Part shown: positions 14,649-24,223 of the stretch, piece after piece
Layout: each line of letters begins with the position of its first letter
Numbering within the stretch: the stretch's first letter is position 1
Origin: a virus
Virus record (IMG/VR): IMGVR_UViG_3300027834_000027
Location: 1 to 25,146 of that record
Reading direction: 5' to 3' (one strand)
Length of the DNA: 25,146 nt
Program-made: the position numbers and the translations under genes
Notes under the pieces: model-generated
What the model saw: the letters and a program-made list of their open reading frames with translations, nothing else
Told to the model about the DNA's origin: nothing
The model's database searches: none

Positions 14649-16187
14649 ATGGCAACACCTAATGAAATCTATAAAATAACCCTAGAGAATAGGGAAGCTT
14701 TAAATCAAATCTTTGATAAGGCGAAGAAGACTGGCGACTTTGATGACGCTGGTGTTCTTGTTGATGCTGACCTGGTTAGGATTACTCGAGGTGACATAAC
14801 CTACAAAACAACGGTTGGAGCAATAAAGGCAGCTAGTGGTGGTGGAGATACCAATGTTCAATCTGATTGGGCAACAATAGATAATCAGGACGATTCATAC
14901 ATCTTAAACAAGCCTGAGAACTTATCTGATTTTAACAATGACCTCGACCCTGTTGATGTTACGGCTGATGCCTATTCATCTTTAGACACAGGCCTTGTTA
15001 CAGGTGGTGTCGTTACAATAAACTCAGGAGACAATACTAAATTTGACGTTAGTGCTGGTACGGGTATTTTAATGAATTGGACAGACCCAAGCAATCCAAT
15101 AAGAGAAGTTATCACTTGGACTGCATTTACGGCAGAGGCAGTTCCAGATTTATCTGAGCCTTTCACATCATTGTATATTGGTAGTGGTGGAACATTAGTA
15201 AAAGTAAGTGGAGTTTTATCAACGCCTCAAACTAGAAGACAAAGAATTGAATTACAAGTTGTTGAGCATGCAAATGGATTCTTCATATCTAATGTTGCAG
15301 GTTCTTCAAGGCCTGCATATCAAGTAGTTGATTCAATATTGGATTATCTTGATTTCAACGGAAACTTAAATAAAGGTAATGTTGCAGAGCCAAATGGAGC
15401 GAATTTAAATATAAATAAGACTGAGGGTCAGACTTGTAGTCCTTTTATAAATAGGGTTAATGATTTACAGAATCCAACGATATTAGACAATGCTGCAATA
15501 TCAAACTTGCAATTTTTCTACATGTATAGAGATGGAGCAGGTGGATTCAATATCATGCCGGCAACTGAGATCAATCCTAATTTTTGGGATGATGGAACTG
15601 GGGTTTTGAATACCATGACAAATCAAGAGTTTTCTGTACAGAGGTTTTATTACATTGGTGGAACAAACCAAGTATTTATAACTTACGGACAAGCTGAGTA
15701 CCAAAGCATGTTGGAAGCAAAATCTGCAATATTCGCAGAGAACCCTGAGTTATCAACCCTTGTTAATGTAGCTACTTTCACAACGGCAATAGTTGTCAAG
15801 GATAATACAACTGACCTGACAGACATTGCTGATGCTGAGTTTGTGGATATCACAATACCTGGTGCAGGTGGTGGCTCTGGTGGTGGTGGTACAGGTGACA
15901 TGAATAAAGCAGACTATGACACTTTGAATACGGGTAACTCTGTAGATACTGCCCAGTCATTAAATGGATTTACTGAGGCTGACTTTATATTTCTTGACGA
16001 ATTCCCTTTTGATTTAGCAAAAAGAGTTTCAAAATATCCAGGCAATATAGCATACTCTTTAGAAGTTAATGATATGGTCGTAAACTATTGGTGGAGTACA
16101 ACCTTGTTTATAAAACAAGCACAATACAATGGTGGTGATGATAGCTTATTAGCTTCTTACACAATTATTGACTCAATTGAATTTTAA
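14649..16187 (+). CDS. Tail fibre-type structural protein with Gly-rich hinge
   Basis: A 512-aa protein starting immediately after the previous stop. The N-terminal helix (MATPNEIYKITLENREALNQ) leads to a linker like those of many phage fibres: GGGDTNVQSDWATIDNQDDS, ending YILNKP. The middle is beta-rich with a strand-turn pattern, followed by a Gly hinge (GAGGGSGGGGTGDMNKADYD) at about residues 409-428. A C-terminal domain then starts near NTGNSVDTAQSLNGFTEADF and ends in strands. The N-terminal linker motif commonly joins a baseplate anchor to a distal fibre. No signal peptide is present, unlike the next three genes, so this is the likely cytoplasmically assembled anchor. Confidence 0.6.
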   Translation: MATPNEIYKITLENREALNQIFDKAKKTGDFDDAGVLVDADLVRITRGDITYKTTVGAIKAASGGGDTNVQSDWATIDNQDDSYILNKPENLSDFNNDLDPVDVTADAYSSLDTGLVTGGVVTINSGDNTKFDVSAGTGILMNWTDPSNPIREVITWTAFTAEAVPDLSEPFTSLYIGSGGTLVKVSGVLSTPQTRRQRIELQVVEHANGFFISNVAGSSRPAYQVVDSILDYLDFNGNLNKGNVAEPNGANLNINKTEGQTCSPFINRVNDLQNPTILDNAAISNLQFFYMYRDGAGGFNIMPATEINPNFWDDGTGVLNTMTNQEFSVQRFYYIGGTNQVFITYGQAEYQSMLEAKSAIFAENPELSTLVNVATFTTAIVVKDNTTDLTDIADAEFVDITIPGAGGGSGGGGTGDMNKADYDTLNTGNSVDTAQSLNGFTEADFIFLDEFPFDLAKRVSKYPGNIAYSLEVNDMVVNYWWSTTLFIKQAQYNGGDDSLLASYTIIDSIEF

Positions 16188-16219: not shown

Positions 16220-19200
16220 ATGAAAAAATTATTTAGTTTATTATTATTACTTGTAGCGTTCAATACGTTCGGACAGATAATCGTTCACAATCAACCAGTG
16301 AGACTGAAACAAGTTTCTCTTGGTGTTCAATCTGACAGTCTTGTTATGATTGACGGTGTTGGTGAATTAAAGTACTTACCTCTTTCTGATATTCAAATCT
16401 CACCTGAGGTTGCGATTATATCTAAGGATGAAGGTAGCGGTCAAACATTCTATCCTCAAGTTTTCTCAAGAGACTTTAAAGGAGTTGGTGGTGCAGGAGC
16501 ATTGGATATGTCTTTCGCTGATGGAGTAGGTGGATATGGTGCTTTGAATGGTGCTTTGGGTGACCAGTCATTTGTGATGGGTTATAATTCAAAAGCAGAA
16601 GGTTATGGTTCATTCTTGTTAGGTCAAGATTCAGACATACCTGCTAGTGGTACTTATGCATTTAATATTGGTACAGATAATACAATAGGTGGTTATTCGG
16701 GTATCGGTCTTGGAACATTTCTAACTAATACAACTAATTACGGAATACAGATTGGACACACCATTGAGTTTAATCAAGGTGGATTAAATGTAGGTATTGG
16801 ATTTGGTTTGTCTGAGACTACTGCCAATTCTGATAAGGTTGCTATTTTCGGTCAAGGAAACAAAGAACCTATTAACTCAGAAGGATTTAATGCTAACAAC
16901 ATTGGTACGATAATAGGATCGGGTGATTTAACTGGTACTGGGTCTACTCCTTTCGTTAGAGTCACTCCAAGAAACTCGATAGTAGTCTTTAGGGATGCCG
17001 AGGCAGGATTGGTAAATTTAGAGGCATCTACATTGGCTAATCTTAAAGTTTGGGATGATACCTTCCCTCATGCTGCTGCTACAGTTGAGTACGTTCAAGA
17101 TGCGGTTACGTCAGGAACGAGTGGGGATGCTCTTGTCGGTGTAGATGAAGGTAGCGGAATTGGTTTTGTTAGGTCAACAGATGATAGAACAGACAAAGGA
17201 ACTATTGGTGCATCTGCTTTAGATTTATCAGTTGTTGGTGTTCCGGCCGTTCTTACTGCTCCTTTCGGTGCGATTGGAGATGCCTCATTTTCTATGGGTT
17301 ATGATAACATTGCAAGTGGGTACGGTGCATTTGCCATGGGTGAAGAGAACCTTTCAAGTGGAACTCACTCTTTTTCTACTGGTGTCTATAATGAGGCTAC
17401 TAATTATGCAAACTTCGCAGTTGGTGGTCGAAATAAACTGACTGGGTTTTACTCTACTGCTCTTGGTATATCGAATTGGGATCAGGGAGAAATATCTTTT
17501 ATGATGGGAATGGCTCTTAGGGCAGATGGCTCTCAAGAGAGTACAATTGTTGGTAGATCGAATGTTACACCATCGACTTACCTAACTACCGAGAGGGTTA
17601 ATTTCATTGTCGGTACTGGTACTACTCAGGGAGATATTACTACATCTCCAAATGGAGCAACTCCTTTGGTTCAACAAGATGGATTAAGAGTTTTTGAAGG
17701 TGGTTTAGTTACTGCTCCTTCTCAGACCTCTGTACTTATAAATGCAAATGATGATGCATTAATTACTAAAGAGTATGCTGACGCTACTTACATTGGTGGT
17801 GGTGGAACTATTGGTGGTACTATTGCTGATACACAAGTCGCTTTCGGTAATGGAACAAACGCTATTGAAGGTAGAGCAGGGTTTACGGCAAGTGCAAACG
17901 CAGTATCTATTGACTCATTGGTTATGACTGGTGGTATTACTTTACCATTTACTGCAACAAGTGGTTTAGGTAAAGGAGCGATTTGGAAAGATGGCTCACC
18001 ATTCATATTCTCGTCAGGAGATAATGAACCTGCCCCAAATATATTCTTTGGAATAAAAGCAGGTGCAGGGTACGCGACTCACGGAACGGGTACAGAGCCT
18101 AATGATGGAAATAATGTTGGTATAGGTTCTTGGTCACTTAATGCTTTAGGTGAAAATGGATATCAGAATACGGCAGTCGGTGGAAGTTCAATGGAACTAA
18201 CAACTACCGGGGATTGGAATGTAGGAGTTGGTGCTGCTGCATTGTATTACAATACGACTGGTTCAAGAAACACAGCAGTCGGTAGAAATTCGGGTAGTAA
18301 TAACATAGCAGGTCATAGCAACTTATTCGCAGGTAATAATGCAGGTATCTTCTTTGGGGGTGCTGCAAACAGTCTTTCAGTTGTCGAAGAAGGTATTTTT
18401 ATAGGTGCTGATACAGATGCTTTGGCTAACAACTCAACCAACGAAATAGTTATTGGATTTAATGCAGTTGGTGGTGGTTCAAATACGGCAATGATTGGGA
18501 ATGGCTCAATCACAAAGATTAGTGCAGGTGCTGATTACAATGCTACTGCTGATAAAGATTTGGTAACTAAAGGGTATGCTGACGCTACTTACTTGGGTGG
18601 TGCGGTTGATAGGTTAGATTGGTCAGCACAATCTGCAGCGAATGGTGATTACACAATTAACGTAAAAGGTCAACCTTTCCTTAGTAACTATTGGGGAAAC
18701 ACTACTGCCAGTGCAAACGATTTTTACACTAATACATTTGTTGGAATCGGATCAGGTAACTATGCAGTTGGTGATGGGTTAAGTGGCCTTGGAGAAGGTG
18801 GAATAAACGTAGGTGTTGGTGCTTACACATTGAATGCTCTGACTACTGGTATGCAGAACGTAATGGTAGGGAATGAGTCAGGTGCTTTAATGACTACGGC
18901 TAACAGAAATATTGGTATTGGTGATGGAGTGTTTTACTTCTCTGTAGATGATGTAAATGATAATGTTGGTATTGGTAAAAACGTATTTCAAAACTTAACG
19001 TCAGGGGATTTCAACATGGCTCTTGGTAGAAACTCAGGCTACTATGCAGGTTCGGGAACAAGTACTACATTGACTTCGGGTGATAACCACACTCTATTAG
19101 GTGCTTCAACAAGACCAAGTGCAAACGGAACAACTAACGAAATAGTTATTGGATCAGATGCTCTTGGTAATGGCTCAAATACTGCAACAATAGGTAGTTC

Positions 19201-19852
19201 AGCCACTACTGATATTTATTTAGGTGAAGTTGGTGGAGCAGGTGGTGCTTATTGGAATGATGGAGAGTCTGAATTTACAAGAGTTAGACCTTACTTTGCT
19301 GGATTCGATGTAGAGACAAAAACATTGGATGCTTTTGGTGGTGGTGTTGACAAACTAAGACTGGCTCATGGTTCGATAAGTGCTACTGACAGAAGGGGAT
19401 ACTTACAATTCATTCCCGAACATGGTCAAAATTTGGTGTCTTTGGAATTTAGAGCCGTTGATGGTGGTGAGGCAGGTGTTAGTGTATTTTCTGGTGACTA
19501 CTTTGATTTCGCAGGAACGAGAATAGAAAAGGCAACATACGATTTAGTTATTGATAACGGTACTGGCGATGCGGGGTTTGGAGCATTCTCAAACCAAAAC
19601 TCTGAGGTTAGGATGACTGAGAGTGCTACTCCAAAAACAATGACATTGCAGGAAGGTTCTATTTCAAATCCCGGTGAGTCTTGGACAATAATCCAAACTG
19701 GTGCAGGTGCAATAACTGTAGCTTGTGAGAATGCGAACGTAAGTATTAATGGTGTTGCAGGTGGATCAGTAACGATAGCTGCTCAGTATTCTTCTATTCA
19801 AATAATTGTAAAGGCTCAAGACGAGTATATTATAATCGGTAATTTTAATTAA
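16220..19852 (+). CDS. Modular tail fibre/adhesin with Sec signal peptide
   Basis: A 1210-aa protein. Residues 1-19 (MKKLFSLLLLLVAFNTFGQ) are a clear signal peptide with a cleavage-like FGQ end. The body is built from YadA-head-like Gly-Asn repeats: SMGYDNIASGYGAFAMGEEN; NTAVGGSSMELTTTGDWNVG; YNTTGSRNTAVGRNSG. By eye there are four modules in two related pairs (about residues 60-300 and 300-525, then 525-790 and 790-1010). Three of them end in fibre linkers (TVEYVQDAV, ITKEYADATYIGG, VTKGYADATYLGG). The C-terminus (about residues 1150-1210; GESWTIIQTGAGAITVACEN, AQYSSIQIIVKAQDEYIIIG) matches the beta domain at the end of many phage fibres. It probably binds a host receptor as a trimer. A signal peptide on such a gene is unexpected. 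Confidence 0.75.
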   Translation: MKKLFSLLLLLVAFNTFGQIIVHNQPVRLKQVSLGVQSDSLVMIDGVGELKYLPLSDIQISPEVAIISKDEGSGQTFYPQVFSRDFKGVGGAGALDMSFADGVGGYGALNGALGDQSFVMGYNSKAEGYGSFLLGQDSDIPASGTYAFNIGTDNTIGGYSGIGLGTFLTNTTNYGIQIGHTIEFNQGGLNVGIGFGLSETTANSDKVAIFGQGNKEPINSEGFNANNIGTIIGSGDLTGTGSTPFVRVTPRNSIVVFRDAEAGLVNLEASTLANLKVWDDTFPHAAATVEYVQDAVTSGTSGDALVGVDEGSGIGFVRSTDDRTDKGTIGASALDLSVVGVPAVLTAPFGAIGDASFSMGYDNIASGYGAFAMGEENLSSGTHSFSTGVYNEATNYANFAVGGRNKLTGFYSTALGISNWDQGEISFMMGMALRADGSQESTIVGRSNVTPSTYLTTERVNFIVGTGTTQGDITTSPNGATPLVQQDGLRVFEGGLVTAPSQTSVLINANDDALITKEYADATYIGGGGTIGGTIADTQVAFGNGTNAIEGRAGFTASANAVSIDSLVMTGGITLPFTATSGLGKGAIWKDGSPFIFSSGDNEPAPNIFFGIKAGAGYATHGTGTEPNDGNNVGIGSWSLNALGENGYQNTAVGGSSMELTTTGDWNVGVGAAALYYNTTGSRNTAVGRNSGSNNIAGHSNLFAGNNAGIFFGGAANSLSVVEEGIFIGADTDALANNSTNEIVIGFNAVGGGSNTAMIGNGSITKISAGADYNATADKDLVTKGYADATYLGGAVDRLDWSAQSAANGDYTINVKGQPFLSNYWGNTTASANDFYTNTFVGIGSGNYAVGDGLSGLGEGGINVGVGAYTLNALTTGMQNVMVGNESGALMTTANRNIGIGDGVFYFSVDDVNDNVGIGKNVFQNLTSGDFNMALGRNSGYYAGSGTSTTLTSGDNHTLLGASTRPSANGTTNEIVIGSDALGNGSNTATIGSSATTDIYLGEVGGAGGAYWNDGESEFTRVRPYFAGFDVETKTLDAFGGGVDKLRLAHGSISATDRRGYLQFIPEHGQNLVSLEFRAVDGGEAGVSVFSGDYFDFAGTRIEKATYDLVIDNGTGDAGFGAFSNQNSEVRMTESATPKTMTLQEGSISNPGESWTIIQTGAGAITVACENANVSINGVAGGSVTIAAQYSSIQIIVKAQDEYIIIGNFN

Positions 19853-19861
19853 AACAAACAG

Positions 19862-20734
19862 ATGAAAAGATTTATTTTATTTTTTATTGCGGTACTGACA
19901 TCGTGGATGTCATTCGCACAAATCAACGGTGCTTTAATCGGTGTCATATCTCAGAGTGGTGGTAGTGGTGGTGTAAACTACTCAATAGCAAATGCAACCT
20001 ACTCAAATCTATTATTTGACCCATCTGCTCAGTTAGGAACGAGCCTAGAGGATGCTTGGGCAGGTGGGGGATATTTGTTTCTTTACGGAAACACACAACT
20101 TTATAGATACTCTTTATCAGACATTACAGATGTGTCAACTGCAACTTACGACAATCAATCAACTGGAAATGGTCAAGCTAGATCAGGTCTTAATCTTTCT
20201 CAAGATGGATTAAACATAAGTATGGAGAATTTCGGATCTGTTCATACAAAGCTATCATTATCACCTGCATGGGATTTAAACTCTGCACCTGGTGCCCCAT
20301 CAACAAACTTGTCATCAACGGCAGGTACAAACACAAGAGGTTGGACAACTAATTATGATGGAACAAAACTATGGGGTATCAATAGCGATAGCAATATAGT
20401 TTATCAATTCTCAATGAGTCCTGGCTTTACTGGAACGCCAACTAGCGATACTGCTAGTATAGACCTTAGTGCAAACCTAGGTCAAGGGTACGGAATGGGT
20501 ATCTCTCCTGATGGTAAGTATCTGCTTATTGGCGACAATACTGGGGATACTGTAAAGGAGTTTGAATTCGGAACGATAGGAGATGTGACAACTCTGACAT
20601 ATACTGGAAACTTTGTAAGTTTATCAGGTCTTGACGCTGCTCCTTACGGTTGTGCATATAGCGAGGATGGTACTGCTATTCTTGTTGTCGGGATTCAAAC
20701 AGATAGAGTTTTTCAATTCAACTTAAACAATTAA
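19862..20734 (+). CDS. Secreted beta-propeller protein
   Basis: A 290-aa protein with a signal peptide (MKRFILFFIAVLTSWMSFAQ, residues 1-20) followed by a short Gly/Ser linker (SQSGGSGGVNYS). The remainder has propeller-type repeats, each with a 'position in data, Asp-Gly, strand' layout: NLSQDGLNISMENFG; NYDGTKLWGINSDSNIVYQF; ISPDGKYLLIGDNTGDTVKE; YSEDGTAILVVGIQTDRVFQ. This pattern (xxPDGxKxxxxxxxxDxVxEF) is like propellers found in marine phage structural proteins, and also like NHL or lactonase propellers. It begins 9 nt after the fibre stop. A receptor- or glycan-binding role is inferred; enzymatic activity cannot be argued from the sequence. Confidence 0.65.
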   Translation: MKRFILFFIAVLTSWMSFAQINGALIGVISQSGGSGGVNYSIANATYSNLLFDPSAQLGTSLEDAWAGGGYLFLYGNTQLYRYSLSDITDVSTATYDNQSTGNGQARSGLNLSQDGLNISMENFGSVHTKLSLSPAWDLNSAPGAPSTNLSSTAGTNTRGWTTNYDGTKLWGINSDSNIVYQFSMSPGFTGTPTSDTASIDLSANLGQGYGMGISPDGKYLLIGDNTGDTVKEFEFGTIGDVTTLTYTGNFVSLSGLDAAPYGCAYSEDGTAILVVGIQTDRVFQFNLNN

Positions 20735-20737
20735 ACA

Positions 20738-21646
20738 ATGAGAAAATTAATTTTAATAATTGCATTACTGACGTTTAGCGTTAGTACTGCTCAAGTTGAT
20801 ATCAAACAAGTAGGATATCACAAAGTAATAGTTGCTGATACGGTTTACTCTCAGCACTCACAAGATTATCAAGCACAAGAGACTCAATTGAATTTAGAGT
20901 TTCAAGGGATTGAATCAAAGATAATTCCGGCTGAGAAGGTTGTTACCATACGTCCTGACTTTTGGGATAATATGACACCTGATACAGTTTATGTAGAGAC
21001 TCTTGAATATGTTTACGACACAATCTATTTAGAGGGCGACACAGAGACTCGCTATGTTGACATGATACAAGTTAATGGAAAAGATTACAAAGTCTCGGAA
21101 ATCGAATATATGCTACCTCAAACAGAGGTTGACACTATTGATGTGACTGAATGCTGGGATGAGGTAGATTCTAAAACATGGCGATGGGATACCCCGGAAC
21201 ATGTTTGGATTCCATTTGAAGAGATTGGATTCTCTCATGTTGAAGTTGACTCGATGCCTATATGGAAGAAAAAGTTTCAAAGAAAATATAGACTCCAAAG
21301 AACTAAGCATCATGACCTTGCGAAGACTGAGTATAAAGAATTGGAGATGCCATTTCAATTTATGTACGATTCAATCGTTTCAGTAGAGAGCAATGTTGCT
21401 ACGGTTCGAGTATTTGCTAACGAAGATTGGTATCCAACCACTTATGTTGAGGATCAACAATGGGAAGAATTAATCGACTCTATGCCAGGCTATCAAGATT
21501 TTGATGGATTCGAAACTAGAAGACATACAATTACGTTCAATGGGTTGTTACCAGACACTTCCTACACGCTCAAAGTAGTCGGTCGCTCCCGTTTAAGAAA
21601 GGAGGAAACATCTGTAGTGTATTTTAACATCAAAACTTCTCAGTAA
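20738..21646 (+). CDS. Secreted protein with C-terminal FnIII-like domain
   Basis: A 302-aa protein with a signal peptide (MRKLILIIALLTFSVSTAQ, residues 1-19). The first half is acidic, with aromatic-Thr-Asp strands (DTVYVETLEYVYDTIYLEGD). The middle is unusually rich in Trp and His (VTECWDEVDSKTWRWDTPEH; WKKKFQRKYRLQRTKHHDLA). The last ~95 residues look like a fibronectin type III domain: SVESNVATVRVFANEDWYPT early, then TFNGLLPDTSYTLKVVGRSR and YFNIKTSQ at the end. It is the last of the three signal-peptide genes, with only 3 nt before it. I do not recognise a family for the N-terminal part. Bacteroidota surface attachment is plausible but unproved. Confidence 0.65.
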   Translation: MRKLILIIALLTFSVSTAQVDIKQVGYHKVIVADTVYSQHSQDYQAQETQLNLEFQGIESKIIPAEKVVTIRPDFWDNMTPDTVYVETLEYVYDTIYLEGDTETRYVDMIQVNGKDYKVSEIEYMLPQTEVDTIDVTECWDEVDSKTWRWDTPEHVWIPFEEIGFSHVEVDSMPIWKKKFQRKYRLQRTKHHDLAKTEYKELEMPFQFMYDSIVSVESNVATVRVFANEDWYPTTYVEDQQWEELIDSMPGYQDFDGFETRRHTITFNGLLPDTSYTLKVVGRSRLRKEETSVVYFNIKTSQ

Positions 21647-21703: not shown

Positions 21704-22249
21704 ATGACATTAGAAAAGCAATTTATAAAGAATGAGAGTAAAATCAAAACTTACCTCTTCCATAAGACAAGCAGAAATAAAGAACTAGCTGAAGATTTAT
21801 TCCAAGAACTTTATATCAAGCTTCGGAGAATTGCAGATTCGGGCAAATACGTGGAAGAGGGAAAGTTTATGAACTTCATAAAAAGGATAGCATCCAATAT
21901 GCTCATTGACCACCACCGAGCAGAAACAAGACTTAATACTTTTAGGGAATCCGATTGGAATAACCTCACAAATGAACCAAACCGTACTGGATATATATTT
22001 GATTTATTGCTTGGTGGAAAAGAGGATGAGCCTTATATCGACACCTGGGTTAGTGATGAAATGGCTGATAAGCTTGAAAAGGCAATTGAAACTTTGCCAC
22101 TTGCTCAAAAAGAGTTGGTTACCATGAGGTATTATCGCAATATGACATATAAGGAAATCGTTTTAGAAACAGGAGAGAAACAGGCAAATCTACTGCCTAG
22201 AATGTTTCACGCTAAGAAGAATTTAAGAAAAATATTGTGTAATGACTGA
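21704..22249 (+). CDS. ECF-type RNA polymerase sigma factor
   Basis: This 181-aa protein has the two-domain layout of group 4 (ECF) sigma factors. Region 2 covers about residues 10-80: NKELAEDLFQELYIKLRRIA (2.1-2.2, core-binding) and MNFIKRIASNMLIDHHRAET (2.3-2.4, -10 recognition). Region 4 covers about residues 120-178: KLEKAIETLPLAQKELVTMR and YKEIVLETGEKQANLLPRMF with a closing AKKNLRK (helix-turn-helix for the -35 element). The length is normal and no region is missing. It should redirect host RNA polymerase. No anti-sigma gene is recognised next to it; the following gene overlaps by 8 nt and is membrane-embedded. A phage-borne ECF factor placed inside the late region is unusual. Confidence 0.88.
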   Translation: MTLEKQFIKNESKIKTYLFHKTSRNKELAEDLFQELYIKLRRIADSGKYVEEGKFMNFIKRIASNMLIDHHRAETRLNTFRESDWNNLTNEPNRTGYIFDLLLGGKEDEPYIDTWVSDEMADKLEKAIETLPLAQKELVTMRYYRNMTYKEIVLETGEKQANLLPRMFHAKKNLRKILCND

Positions 22250-23737: not shown

Positions 23738-24223
23738 ATGAAACAGATATTCCAAATGTTGTTGATCTTCTCATTGAGCAGCTTAACGATTTTGTCATGC
23801 AAGAGTGTAAAATCGCCAAAATACATAACACACACAGAAACCCTCTCAGACACTTTAATTCGTCACGAGGTAGAATCTATAGTACTACCCCAAAGAAACG
23901 TTGTGGTGATAGAAAATCCATGCAAAGAGAATACTTTATCATTACTTAATCAAACCATAGAAAATGATTACTCTACTTTATCTGTTACGTCAGAGAATAA
24001 TACTTTACATATCGAAGTGGATATTGACTCAATCGTTAATTCTCGACTTAATGAGGTTAGTGTTAAAAGCGAAGTGGAGAGGATTGAAATTCCGGTTGAA
24101 GTTCCGTATCCAGTTAAAAATAAACTCAACTTATATATGGTTCTCTACTCAATTGGAGCGACTATCTTATTATTTCGAAAACCTATTTGGTTTCTGATCC
24201 GTAAACTTATAATGCCGATTTAA
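23738..24223 (+). CDS. Unimolecular spanin (lipoprotein with C-terminal TM)
   Basis: A 161-aa protein with a lipoprotein signal (MKQIFQMLLIFSLSSLTILS then Cys21; lipobox ILSC). A long periplasmic part rich in Ser, Thr, Glu and Asn follows (YITHTETLSDTLIRHEVES; SLLNQTIENDYSTLSVTSEN). A C-terminal membrane segment closes it (LNLYMVLYSIGATILLF, about residues 130-146, then RKP and a further hydrophobic stretch). An outer-membrane lipid anchor at one end and an inner-membrane helix at the other is the layout of u-spanins, which fuse the two membranes at lysis. CKSVKS after the Cys lacks the acidic surface-export signal of Bacteroidota lipoproteins, so it should stay in the inner leaflet. Start at 23738 follows an A-rich leader. 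Confidence 0.7.
   Translation: MKQIFQMLLIFSLSSLTILSCKSVKSPKYITHTETLSDTLIRHEVESIVLPQRNVVVIENPCKENTLSLLNQTIENDYSTLSVTSENNTLHIEVDIDSIVNSRLNEVSVKSEVERIEIPVEVPYPVKNKLNLYMVLYSIGATILLFRKPIWFLIRKLIMPI

What the first reader, a model, noticed from the sequence alone, without database searches (positions are those of the whole stretch)
16220..21646. Three consecutive fibre-region genes each start with a Sec signal peptide
Seen directly: genes at 16220, 19862 and 20738 begin with Lys/Arg, a hydrophobic core and an AxA-like end followed by Gln (TFGQ, SFAQ, STAQ). The gene before them (14649) and all other tail genes lack this. Known: tail fibres are assembled in the cytoplasm, so an N-terminal Sec signal would divert them to the periplasm. 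Yet the 1210-aa protein ends in a typical phage-fibre beta domain. Inference: either the signals serve display of fibre, propeller and FnIII proteins on the infected or lysogenised cell (adhesion, exclusion, receptor masking), or the virion takes these proteins up after export or at lysis. A secreted fibre-propeller-FnIII cassette would be a new kind of phage module.
Basis: partly seen in the sequence, partly recalled or inferred. Interest (0 to 1): 0.78.

Follow-up and report, generated by a model that had tools for sequence, protein, structure and literature searches.

The report
Phage tail fibres with export signals
Three neighbouring tail-fibre genes of this marine Bacteroidota phage begin with genuine-looking export signals, and the same arrangement occurs in at least nine other flavobacterial phages, in four of which 13 such proteins are recorded by mass spectrometry as parts of the finished virus particle; this suggests that these fibres are made outside the cytoplasm and join the particle late, which is not how tailed phages are thought to be built.

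Summary
Genes 16220, 19862 and 20738 each begin with a Sec/signal-peptidase-I type signal ending in G/A^Q, the 'Bacteroidetes Q-rule'. The preceding fibre gene (14649) and the other window genes lack one, apart from the spanin-like lipoprotein at 23738. It is not unique to this phage. Consecutive fibre/spike genes with Q-rule signals occur in Cellulophaga phages phi19:1, phi10:1, Nekkels, phi18:3, phi46:3, phi13:2, phi19:3, phi39:1 and Ingeline, and in one environmental contig. In phi19:1, phi10:1, phi18:3 and phi39:1, 13 such proteins are annotated as virion structural proteins from MS/MS. Head, tail-tube and adaptor proteins, and homologous spikes in crAss-like phages, lack the signal. One 20-codon signal shows 109 pairwise synonymous against 0 non-synonymous codon differences. 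Homologous fibres carry unrelated but rule-obeying signals. Best reading: fibres/depolymerases are exported by Sec, processed, and dock on a cytoplasmically built adaptor when the inner membrane breaks. Signal and virion association are well supported; export, cleavage and late docking are inferred. Pure cell-surface display is less likely. Held literature mentions Q-rule phage proteins only as 'of unknown function' in Porphyromonas phages. The FnIII label for 20738 is weak.

The parts
14649..16187 (+). Tail fibre / adaptor protein without signal peptide (512 aa), proposed cytoplasmic acceptor for the exported fibres
   Evidence: phrog_5668 tail fiber E=1.9e-9; no SP; same position as non-signal adaptors phi10:1 gp090 and phi39:1 gp24, which are MS/MS virion proteins
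16220..19852 (+). 1210-aa fibre/spike protein with N-terminal Q-rule Sec signal
   Evidence: matches phrog_6002 virion structural protein (E=4.9e-9) and phrog_4636 tail spike (E=1.1e-5); residues 649-763 match the signal-less tail spike of Flavobacterium phage immuto
16220..16273 (+). Predicted signal peptide MKKLFSLLLLLVAFNTFG^Q (18 aa)
19862..20734 (+). 290-aa propeller-like protein with N-terminal Q-rule Sec signal
   Evidence: homologous region lies in tail-region proteins of roseophages CRP-738 and ICBM2, signal-less in ICBM2
19862..19918 (+). Predicted signal peptide MKRFILFFIAVLTSWMSFA^Q (19 aa)
20738..21646 (+). 302-aa protein with N-terminal Q-rule Sec signal; no detectable relatives; possible weak FnIII-like C-terminus
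20738..20791 (+). Predicted signal peptide MRKLILIIALLTFSVSTA^Q (18 aa)

Best explanation
The three genes are the exported part of the phage's adsorption apparatus. SHOWN by sequence: each has a Sec/SPase-I signal of the Bacteroidota Q-rule type, while the fibre gene before them has none. SHOWN in relatives: cassettes of 2-5 consecutive signal-bearing fibre/spike genes behind a signal-less small tail protein; 13 such proteins in four phages are annotated as virion components from MS/MS. INFERRED: during late infection the host Sec system moves these fibres/depolymerases across the inner membrane, SPase I cleaves them, glutaminyl cyclase caps the new N-terminal Gln, and they fold in the periplasm. 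Particles with the adaptor at the tail end are completed in the cytoplasm. When holin, endolysin and spanin open the envelope, the waiting fibres dock on the adaptor. A likely side benefit is that exported depolymerases can clear receptor polysaccharide from the dying cell before progeny leave.
For: Three of three N-termini pass; shuffle chance 0.4-1.3% each. Signal-bearing cassettes in phi19:1, Nekkels, phi10:1 (Assiduviridae), phi18:3, phi46:3, phi13:2, phi19:3 (Pachyviridae), Ingeline (Duneviridae), phi39:1 and environmental contig IMGVR_UViG_3300000969_000005. MS/MS virion annotation for phi19:1 gp101-104, phi10:1 gp091-094, phi18:3 gp085-087, phi39:1 gp25-26. Of 73 MS/MS-annotated virion CDS from six phages, 12 are called and 11 of those are cassette fibres. 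The gp102 signal has 109 pairwise synonymous vs 0 non-synonymous codon differences over 8 sequences. gp101-family fibres share a shaft (50-72% identical) but have signals only 20-40% identical, all with Q at +1. The pectate-lyase spike of phi19:1 is 44-49% identical to signal-less, MS/MS-annotated spikes of phi14:2 and phi4:1. Of 41 further fibre ORFs with the same shaft motif, 40 lack a signal; the exception sits in a 3-gene cassette.
Against: No MS data for this phage; its three products are not close relatives of the MS-verified ones, and a profile of their mature N-termini does not match 16220. Export, cleavage and post-lysis docking were never measured. The MS/MS statements are annotation notes; Holmfeldt et al. 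2013 was not available, so coverage of N-termini is unknown. Virion preparations could carry exported fibres as contaminants. Tail-module relatives (L029; Polaribacter phages) manage without signals.
Confidence: 0.5

Rival explanations
1. Display or secretion is the function: exported fibres/depolymerases act on the infected cell surface or outside it (receptor destruction, superinfection exclusion, matrix degradation), and their presence in virion preparations is incidental.
For: Signals would place them there; many have pectate-lyase annotation; PHROGs files two of these families under moron/host takeover; phages of P. gingivalis carry Q-rule proteins proposed to modify the outer membrane (PMC10367356).
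Against: MS/MS virion annotation of 13 such proteins in four phages; homologous spikes without signal are MS/MS virion proteins in crAss-like phi14:2 and in phi4:1; in phi19:1 the only other MS/MS proteins downstream of the head genes are the tape measure and two conserved tail proteins, so the signal-bearing proteins look like the receptor-binding set; no T9SS domain was found in those scanned to hold them on the surface.
Confidence: 0.22
2. The signals are not used for export: fibres stay in the cytoplasm, the hydrophobic N-terminus remains uncleaved and serves as a docking peptide in the tail tip.
For: Standard tail assembly is cytoplasmic (general knowledge); nearly every carrier in these phages is a fibre-region protein.
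Against: Docking would not require small residues at -3/-1 followed by Gln, yet the rule holds across unrelated signals within one fibre family; the sequences differ (20-40% identity) where a docking motif should be conserved.
Confidence: 0.15
3. The signals are a relic: fibre genes were taken from secreted, fibre-like host proteins and have not yet lost the signal.
For: Exchange with host secreted proteins is plausible (inference); the window's 20738 has no phage relatives found.
Against: Strong conservation of the gp102 signal (109 synonymous vs 0 non-synonymous differences); all genes of a cassette carry one; different signals retained on homologous fibres.
Confidence: 0.05

Closest known systems
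Bacteroidetes Q-rule Sec/SPase I substrates (PMC5837995, PMC10653852)
   Same: Same n/h/c-region architecture and Gln at +1
   Different: Those are host envelope and secreted proteins; here the carriers are tail-fibre-region proteins of a tailed phage
Q-rule proteins of Porphyromonas gingivalis phages 'Nixviridae' (PMC10367356)
   Same: Phage-encoded proteins obeying the Q-rule
   Different: Described as of unknown function and proposed to modify the outer membrane; no link to fibre cassettes or virions drawn in the passages read
Fibre cassettes of Cellulophaga phages phi19:1, phi10:1, phi18:3, phi39:1
   Same: Consecutive signal-bearing fibre/spike genes behind a signal-less small tail protein; MS/MS virion annotation
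   Different: Not sequence-homologous to the window's 16220 product at the N-terminus; no mention of signals on fibres in the papers searched
Filamentous phage virion proteins with Sec signals (M13 pIII, pVIII; general knowledge)
   Same: Virion proteins that pass through the Sec pathway before assembly
   Different: Filamentous phages assemble in the membrane and extrude; these are tailed dsDNA phages with cytoplasmic head-tail assembly and lysis

Membership tests
Sec/SPase I substrate of the Bacteroidetes Q-rule type | Positive n-region, hydrophobic core, small residues at -3/-1 | tested here: met
   Rule-based caller accepts all three; -3 is T, S and S/T-like with F or T between; SignalP not available
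Sec/SPase I substrate of the Bacteroidetes Q-rule type | Gln at +1 | tested here: met
   TFG^Q, SFA^Q, STA^Q
Sec/SPase I substrate of the Bacteroidetes Q-rule type | Actual export, cleavage and pyroglutamate formation | not testable with these tools
   Needs N-terminal proteomics
Tail fibre / spike protein | Encoded in the structural operon after the tail genes | tested here: met
   directly after fibre gene 14649 and before lysis genes (an ECF sigma gene lies between)
Tail fibre / spike protein | Sequence relation to known fibres/spikes | tested here: inconclusive
   16220 yes (phrog_4636, phrog_6002, immuto spike); 19862 distant match to roseophage tail-region proteins; 20738 none
Tail fibre / spike protein | Present in the virion | not testable with these tools
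   Known only for analogues in other phages
Type IX secretion cargo | C-terminal T9SS sorting domain | tested here: not met
   No such Pfam family in the window proteins or in the relatives scanned
Lysogenic-conversion gene (moron) | Independent unit not needed for the lytic cycle, found in temperate phages | tested here: inconclusive
   Inside the late operon; carriers include phages with and without an integrase in the regions read; no expression data

The most novel reading that the evidence does not exclude
A tailed-phage assembly route in which the receptor-binding fibres are Sec-exported, processed and folded outside the cytoplasm and added to the virion only after the inner membrane is breached. 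Fibres would then be a shared pool at lysis, allowing mixing between co-infecting phages, which would fit the exchange of near-identical signal-bearing fibre N-termini between phages assigned to three families.
Probability: 0.45. Interest if true: 0.88.

Novelty: new variant of a known kind. Interest (0 to 1): 0.7.

Why it matters
Textbook tailed-phage morphogenesis places all fibre assembly in the cytoplasm. If Bacteroidota phages export their fibres and fit them at lysis, host range could depend on the host Sec, SPase I and glutaminyl-cyclase machinery, and fibres could be exchanged between particles at lysis. It also gives a concrete candidate function for 'secreted phage proteins of unknown function' and warns that families filed as morons may be virion spikes. 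Cultured phages (phi19:1, phi10:1, phi18:3, phi39:1 on Cellulophaga baltica) make it directly testable.

Tried and rejected
Close relatives of 16220, 19862 and 20738 in IMG/VR: none. Relatives in GTDB genome contigs with the tail protein and with a signal-bearing fibre N-terminus: none. Multi-sequence tail alignments were too divergent to scan with. Structure prediction of 19862 and 20738 from single sequences failed (mean pLDDT 36), so no fold search was run; both models start with a helix at residues 3-15. Homology of the mature N-terminus of 16220 with the gp102 family ('DSL...PLSDI' look-alike) was tested with a profile and rejected. Periplasmic O-glycosylation (D-S/T-aliphatic motif) as the reason for export: not supported, motifs are if anything scarce in exported fibres, except in 20738. 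T9SS surface display: no sorting domain. Papers were searched for earlier recognition of signals on tailed-phage fibres; none found in the held library, which lacks most subscription journals. Benler 2018 (PMC6199706) reports that phage DGR target proteins lack signals.

Full report
WHAT IS THERE. The window is a 25,146-base IMG/VR record with terminase, portal, capsid, tape measure, two large tail genes, a fibre gene (14649), three further fibre-region genes (16220, 19862, 20738), an ECF-type sigma factor (21704), small membrane proteins, an M15-type endolysin (23225) and a lipoprotein (23738) (capsid, portal and tape measure by position and sequence). Its tail genes are most like those of Polaribacter, Leeuwenhoekiella, Cellulophaga and Tenacibaculum phages, so a flavobacterial host is likely.

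The three products begin MKKLFSLLLLLVAFNTFG^Q, MKRFILFFIAVLTSWMSFA^Q and MRKLILIIALLTFSVSTA^Q. A simple rule-based caller recognises all three and not 14649; in the whole window nothing else is called as a Q-type signal. Shuffled N-termini pass in 0.4-1.3% of cases and spurious ORFs in 3 of 642. Glutamine at +1 is the hallmark of Bacteroidota SPase I substrates: the mean Q-value across species is 71% (PMC5837995), and the Gln is cyclised to pyroglutamate and protects exported proteins (PMC10653852).

IT RECURS AND IS IN VIRIONS. In Cellulophaga phages phi19:1 and Nekkels the genes in the corresponding position begin with the same kind of signal. So do the fibre/spike genes of phi10:1, phi18:3, phi46:3, phi13:2, phi19:3 and Ingeline, phi39:1 and the environmental contig IMGVR_UViG_3300000969_000005. 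These span Assiduviridae, Pachyviridae, Duneviridae and unassigned phages. GenBank notes state that phi19:1 gp101-104, phi10:1 gp091-094, phi18:3 gp085-087 and phi39:1 gp25-26 were identified by experimental MS/MS or are part of the virion by MS/MS. phi39:1 gp25 (MRKLILFFGLIFCLEMAA^Q) was missed by my caller, apparently because of the Glu before the site; I count it by eye. phi19:1 gp104 ends in FG^K rather than Q. Among 73 MS/MS-annotated virion genes of six phages (phi39:1 not included), 12 were called, 11 of them cassette fibres.

IT IS SPECIFIC. In a survey of 23 reference phage regions plus the window, 761 gene-like ORFs of at least 100 aa were examined: 42 Q-type calls, 33 of them in these cassettes (my count). 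Fifteen of the 23 reference regions have no cassette. Four of the nine other calls are one family of membrane proteins and are probably false. A shaft motif shared by the gp101-type fibres pulled 51 loci from IMG/VR. Eight are the Cellulophaga phages or a close environmental contig of that type. Of the other 43, an ORF holding the motif was found in 41; 40 lack a signal (including L061/L029, a relative of this window by terminase; a few of these ORFs are open at the 5' end) and one, L055, has it and sits in a three-gene signal-bearing cassette. The spike of phi19:1 is 44-49% identical to spikes of crAss-like phi14:2 and of phi4:1 that are MS/MS-annotated but have no signal. So the same spike type is used in virions with and without a signal.

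IT IS UNDER SELECTION. Over eight gp102 sequences the 20-codon signal shows 109 summed pairwise synonymous codon differences and no non-synonymous one (pairs are not independent). In the gp103 family the counts are 94 and 81, so that signal varies more, but every version still obeys the rule. In the gp101 family four signals that are only 20-40% identical sit on fibres whose shafts are 50-72% identical. Retention of function without retention of sequence argues for signal function rather than a docking peptide or a relic.

ANATOMY. The cassettes are preceded by a tail protein without signal: 14649 here, phi10:1 gp090 and phi39:1 gp24 (both MS/MS virion proteins), phi19:1 gp99, phi18:3 gp083, L098 8433 and Ingeline 23410. 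I propose these as the acceptor built in the cytoplasm; this is inference from position. In phi19:1, Nekkels, L098 and phi18:3 a 33-70-residue protein with one hydrophobic stretch sits immediately before the first exported fibre; the window has none.

MECHANISM. Shown: signals in the window; signals on virion-annotated fibres elsewhere; selection on one signal; absence from other virion proteins. Inferred: Sec export, cleavage, pyroglutamate capping, periplasmic folding, late docking on the adaptor at lysis. Surface display or secretion is the main rival and could coexist. Cytoplasmic use of an uncleaved N-terminus and evolutionary relic are less likely for the reasons above.

LIMITS. The three window products are not close relatives of the MS-verified fibres; the link is position, architecture and signal type, and a direct profile test of the mature N-terminus was negative. 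19862 and 20738 could not be modelled. No SignalP. The original proteomics paper was not held. Cellulophaga phages dominate the positive set, so the true spread is unknown.

KNOWN BACKGROUND. Porphyromonas phages were reported to encode Q-rule proteins of unknown function (PMC10367356), a point repeated in PMC10653852. Papers on the relatives that were checked do not mention signals on fibres (PMC8776804) or count almost none (PMC4615864: 1 gene in one phage, 0 in the other). I found no paper in the held library that connects signals with tailed-phage fibres.

Noticed in passing
window 23738-24223: Probable one-piece spanin: N-terminal lipobox (LTILS^C) and a C-terminal membrane span in one 161-aa protein after the M15-type endolysin.
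   Followed up: no
window 21704-22249: ECF-type RNA polymerase sigma factor gene directly after the exported fibre cassette and before the lysis genes (Pfam Sigma70_r4_2 E=3.7e-7; phrog_1740 E=9e-18).
   Followed up: no
window 20738-21646: The product holds 7 D-S/T-aliphatic motifs (the general O-glycosylation motif of Bacteroidota, from memory) against 1.3 expected from composition; most other exported fibres have fewer than expected.
   Followed up: partly
L006 17904-18053, L007 17913-18056, L098 8795-8896, L010 12672-12884: Small protein with one hydrophobic stretch encoded immediately before the first signal-bearing fibre gene; in the first three the stop overlaps the fibre start.
   Followed up: partly
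L014 6168-6527 and 6940-7248; L008 2334-2792; L015 37508-38140; L041 33637-34074; L103 21890-22342; L104 19011-19859: Further phage proteins with Q-rule signals away from the fibre region: candidate exported accessory proteins.
   Followed up: no
L102 8962-10014: Maribacter phage Colly_1 encodes an annotated OmpA-family protein with a Q-rule signal next to a tail fibre gene.
   Followed up: no
L006 19596-21929; L013 23389-24879: PHROG families 11548 and 27797 ('pectate lyase') are filed as moron/auxiliary, although the phi19:1 member of 11548 is annotated as an MS/MS virion protein.
   Followed up: partly
L011 14514-17691; L014 17874-22087: phi46:3 and phi19:3 each carry two copies of the gp103-type fibre with near-identical signal but different bodies, which points to shuffling of receptor-binding parts.
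   Followed up: no
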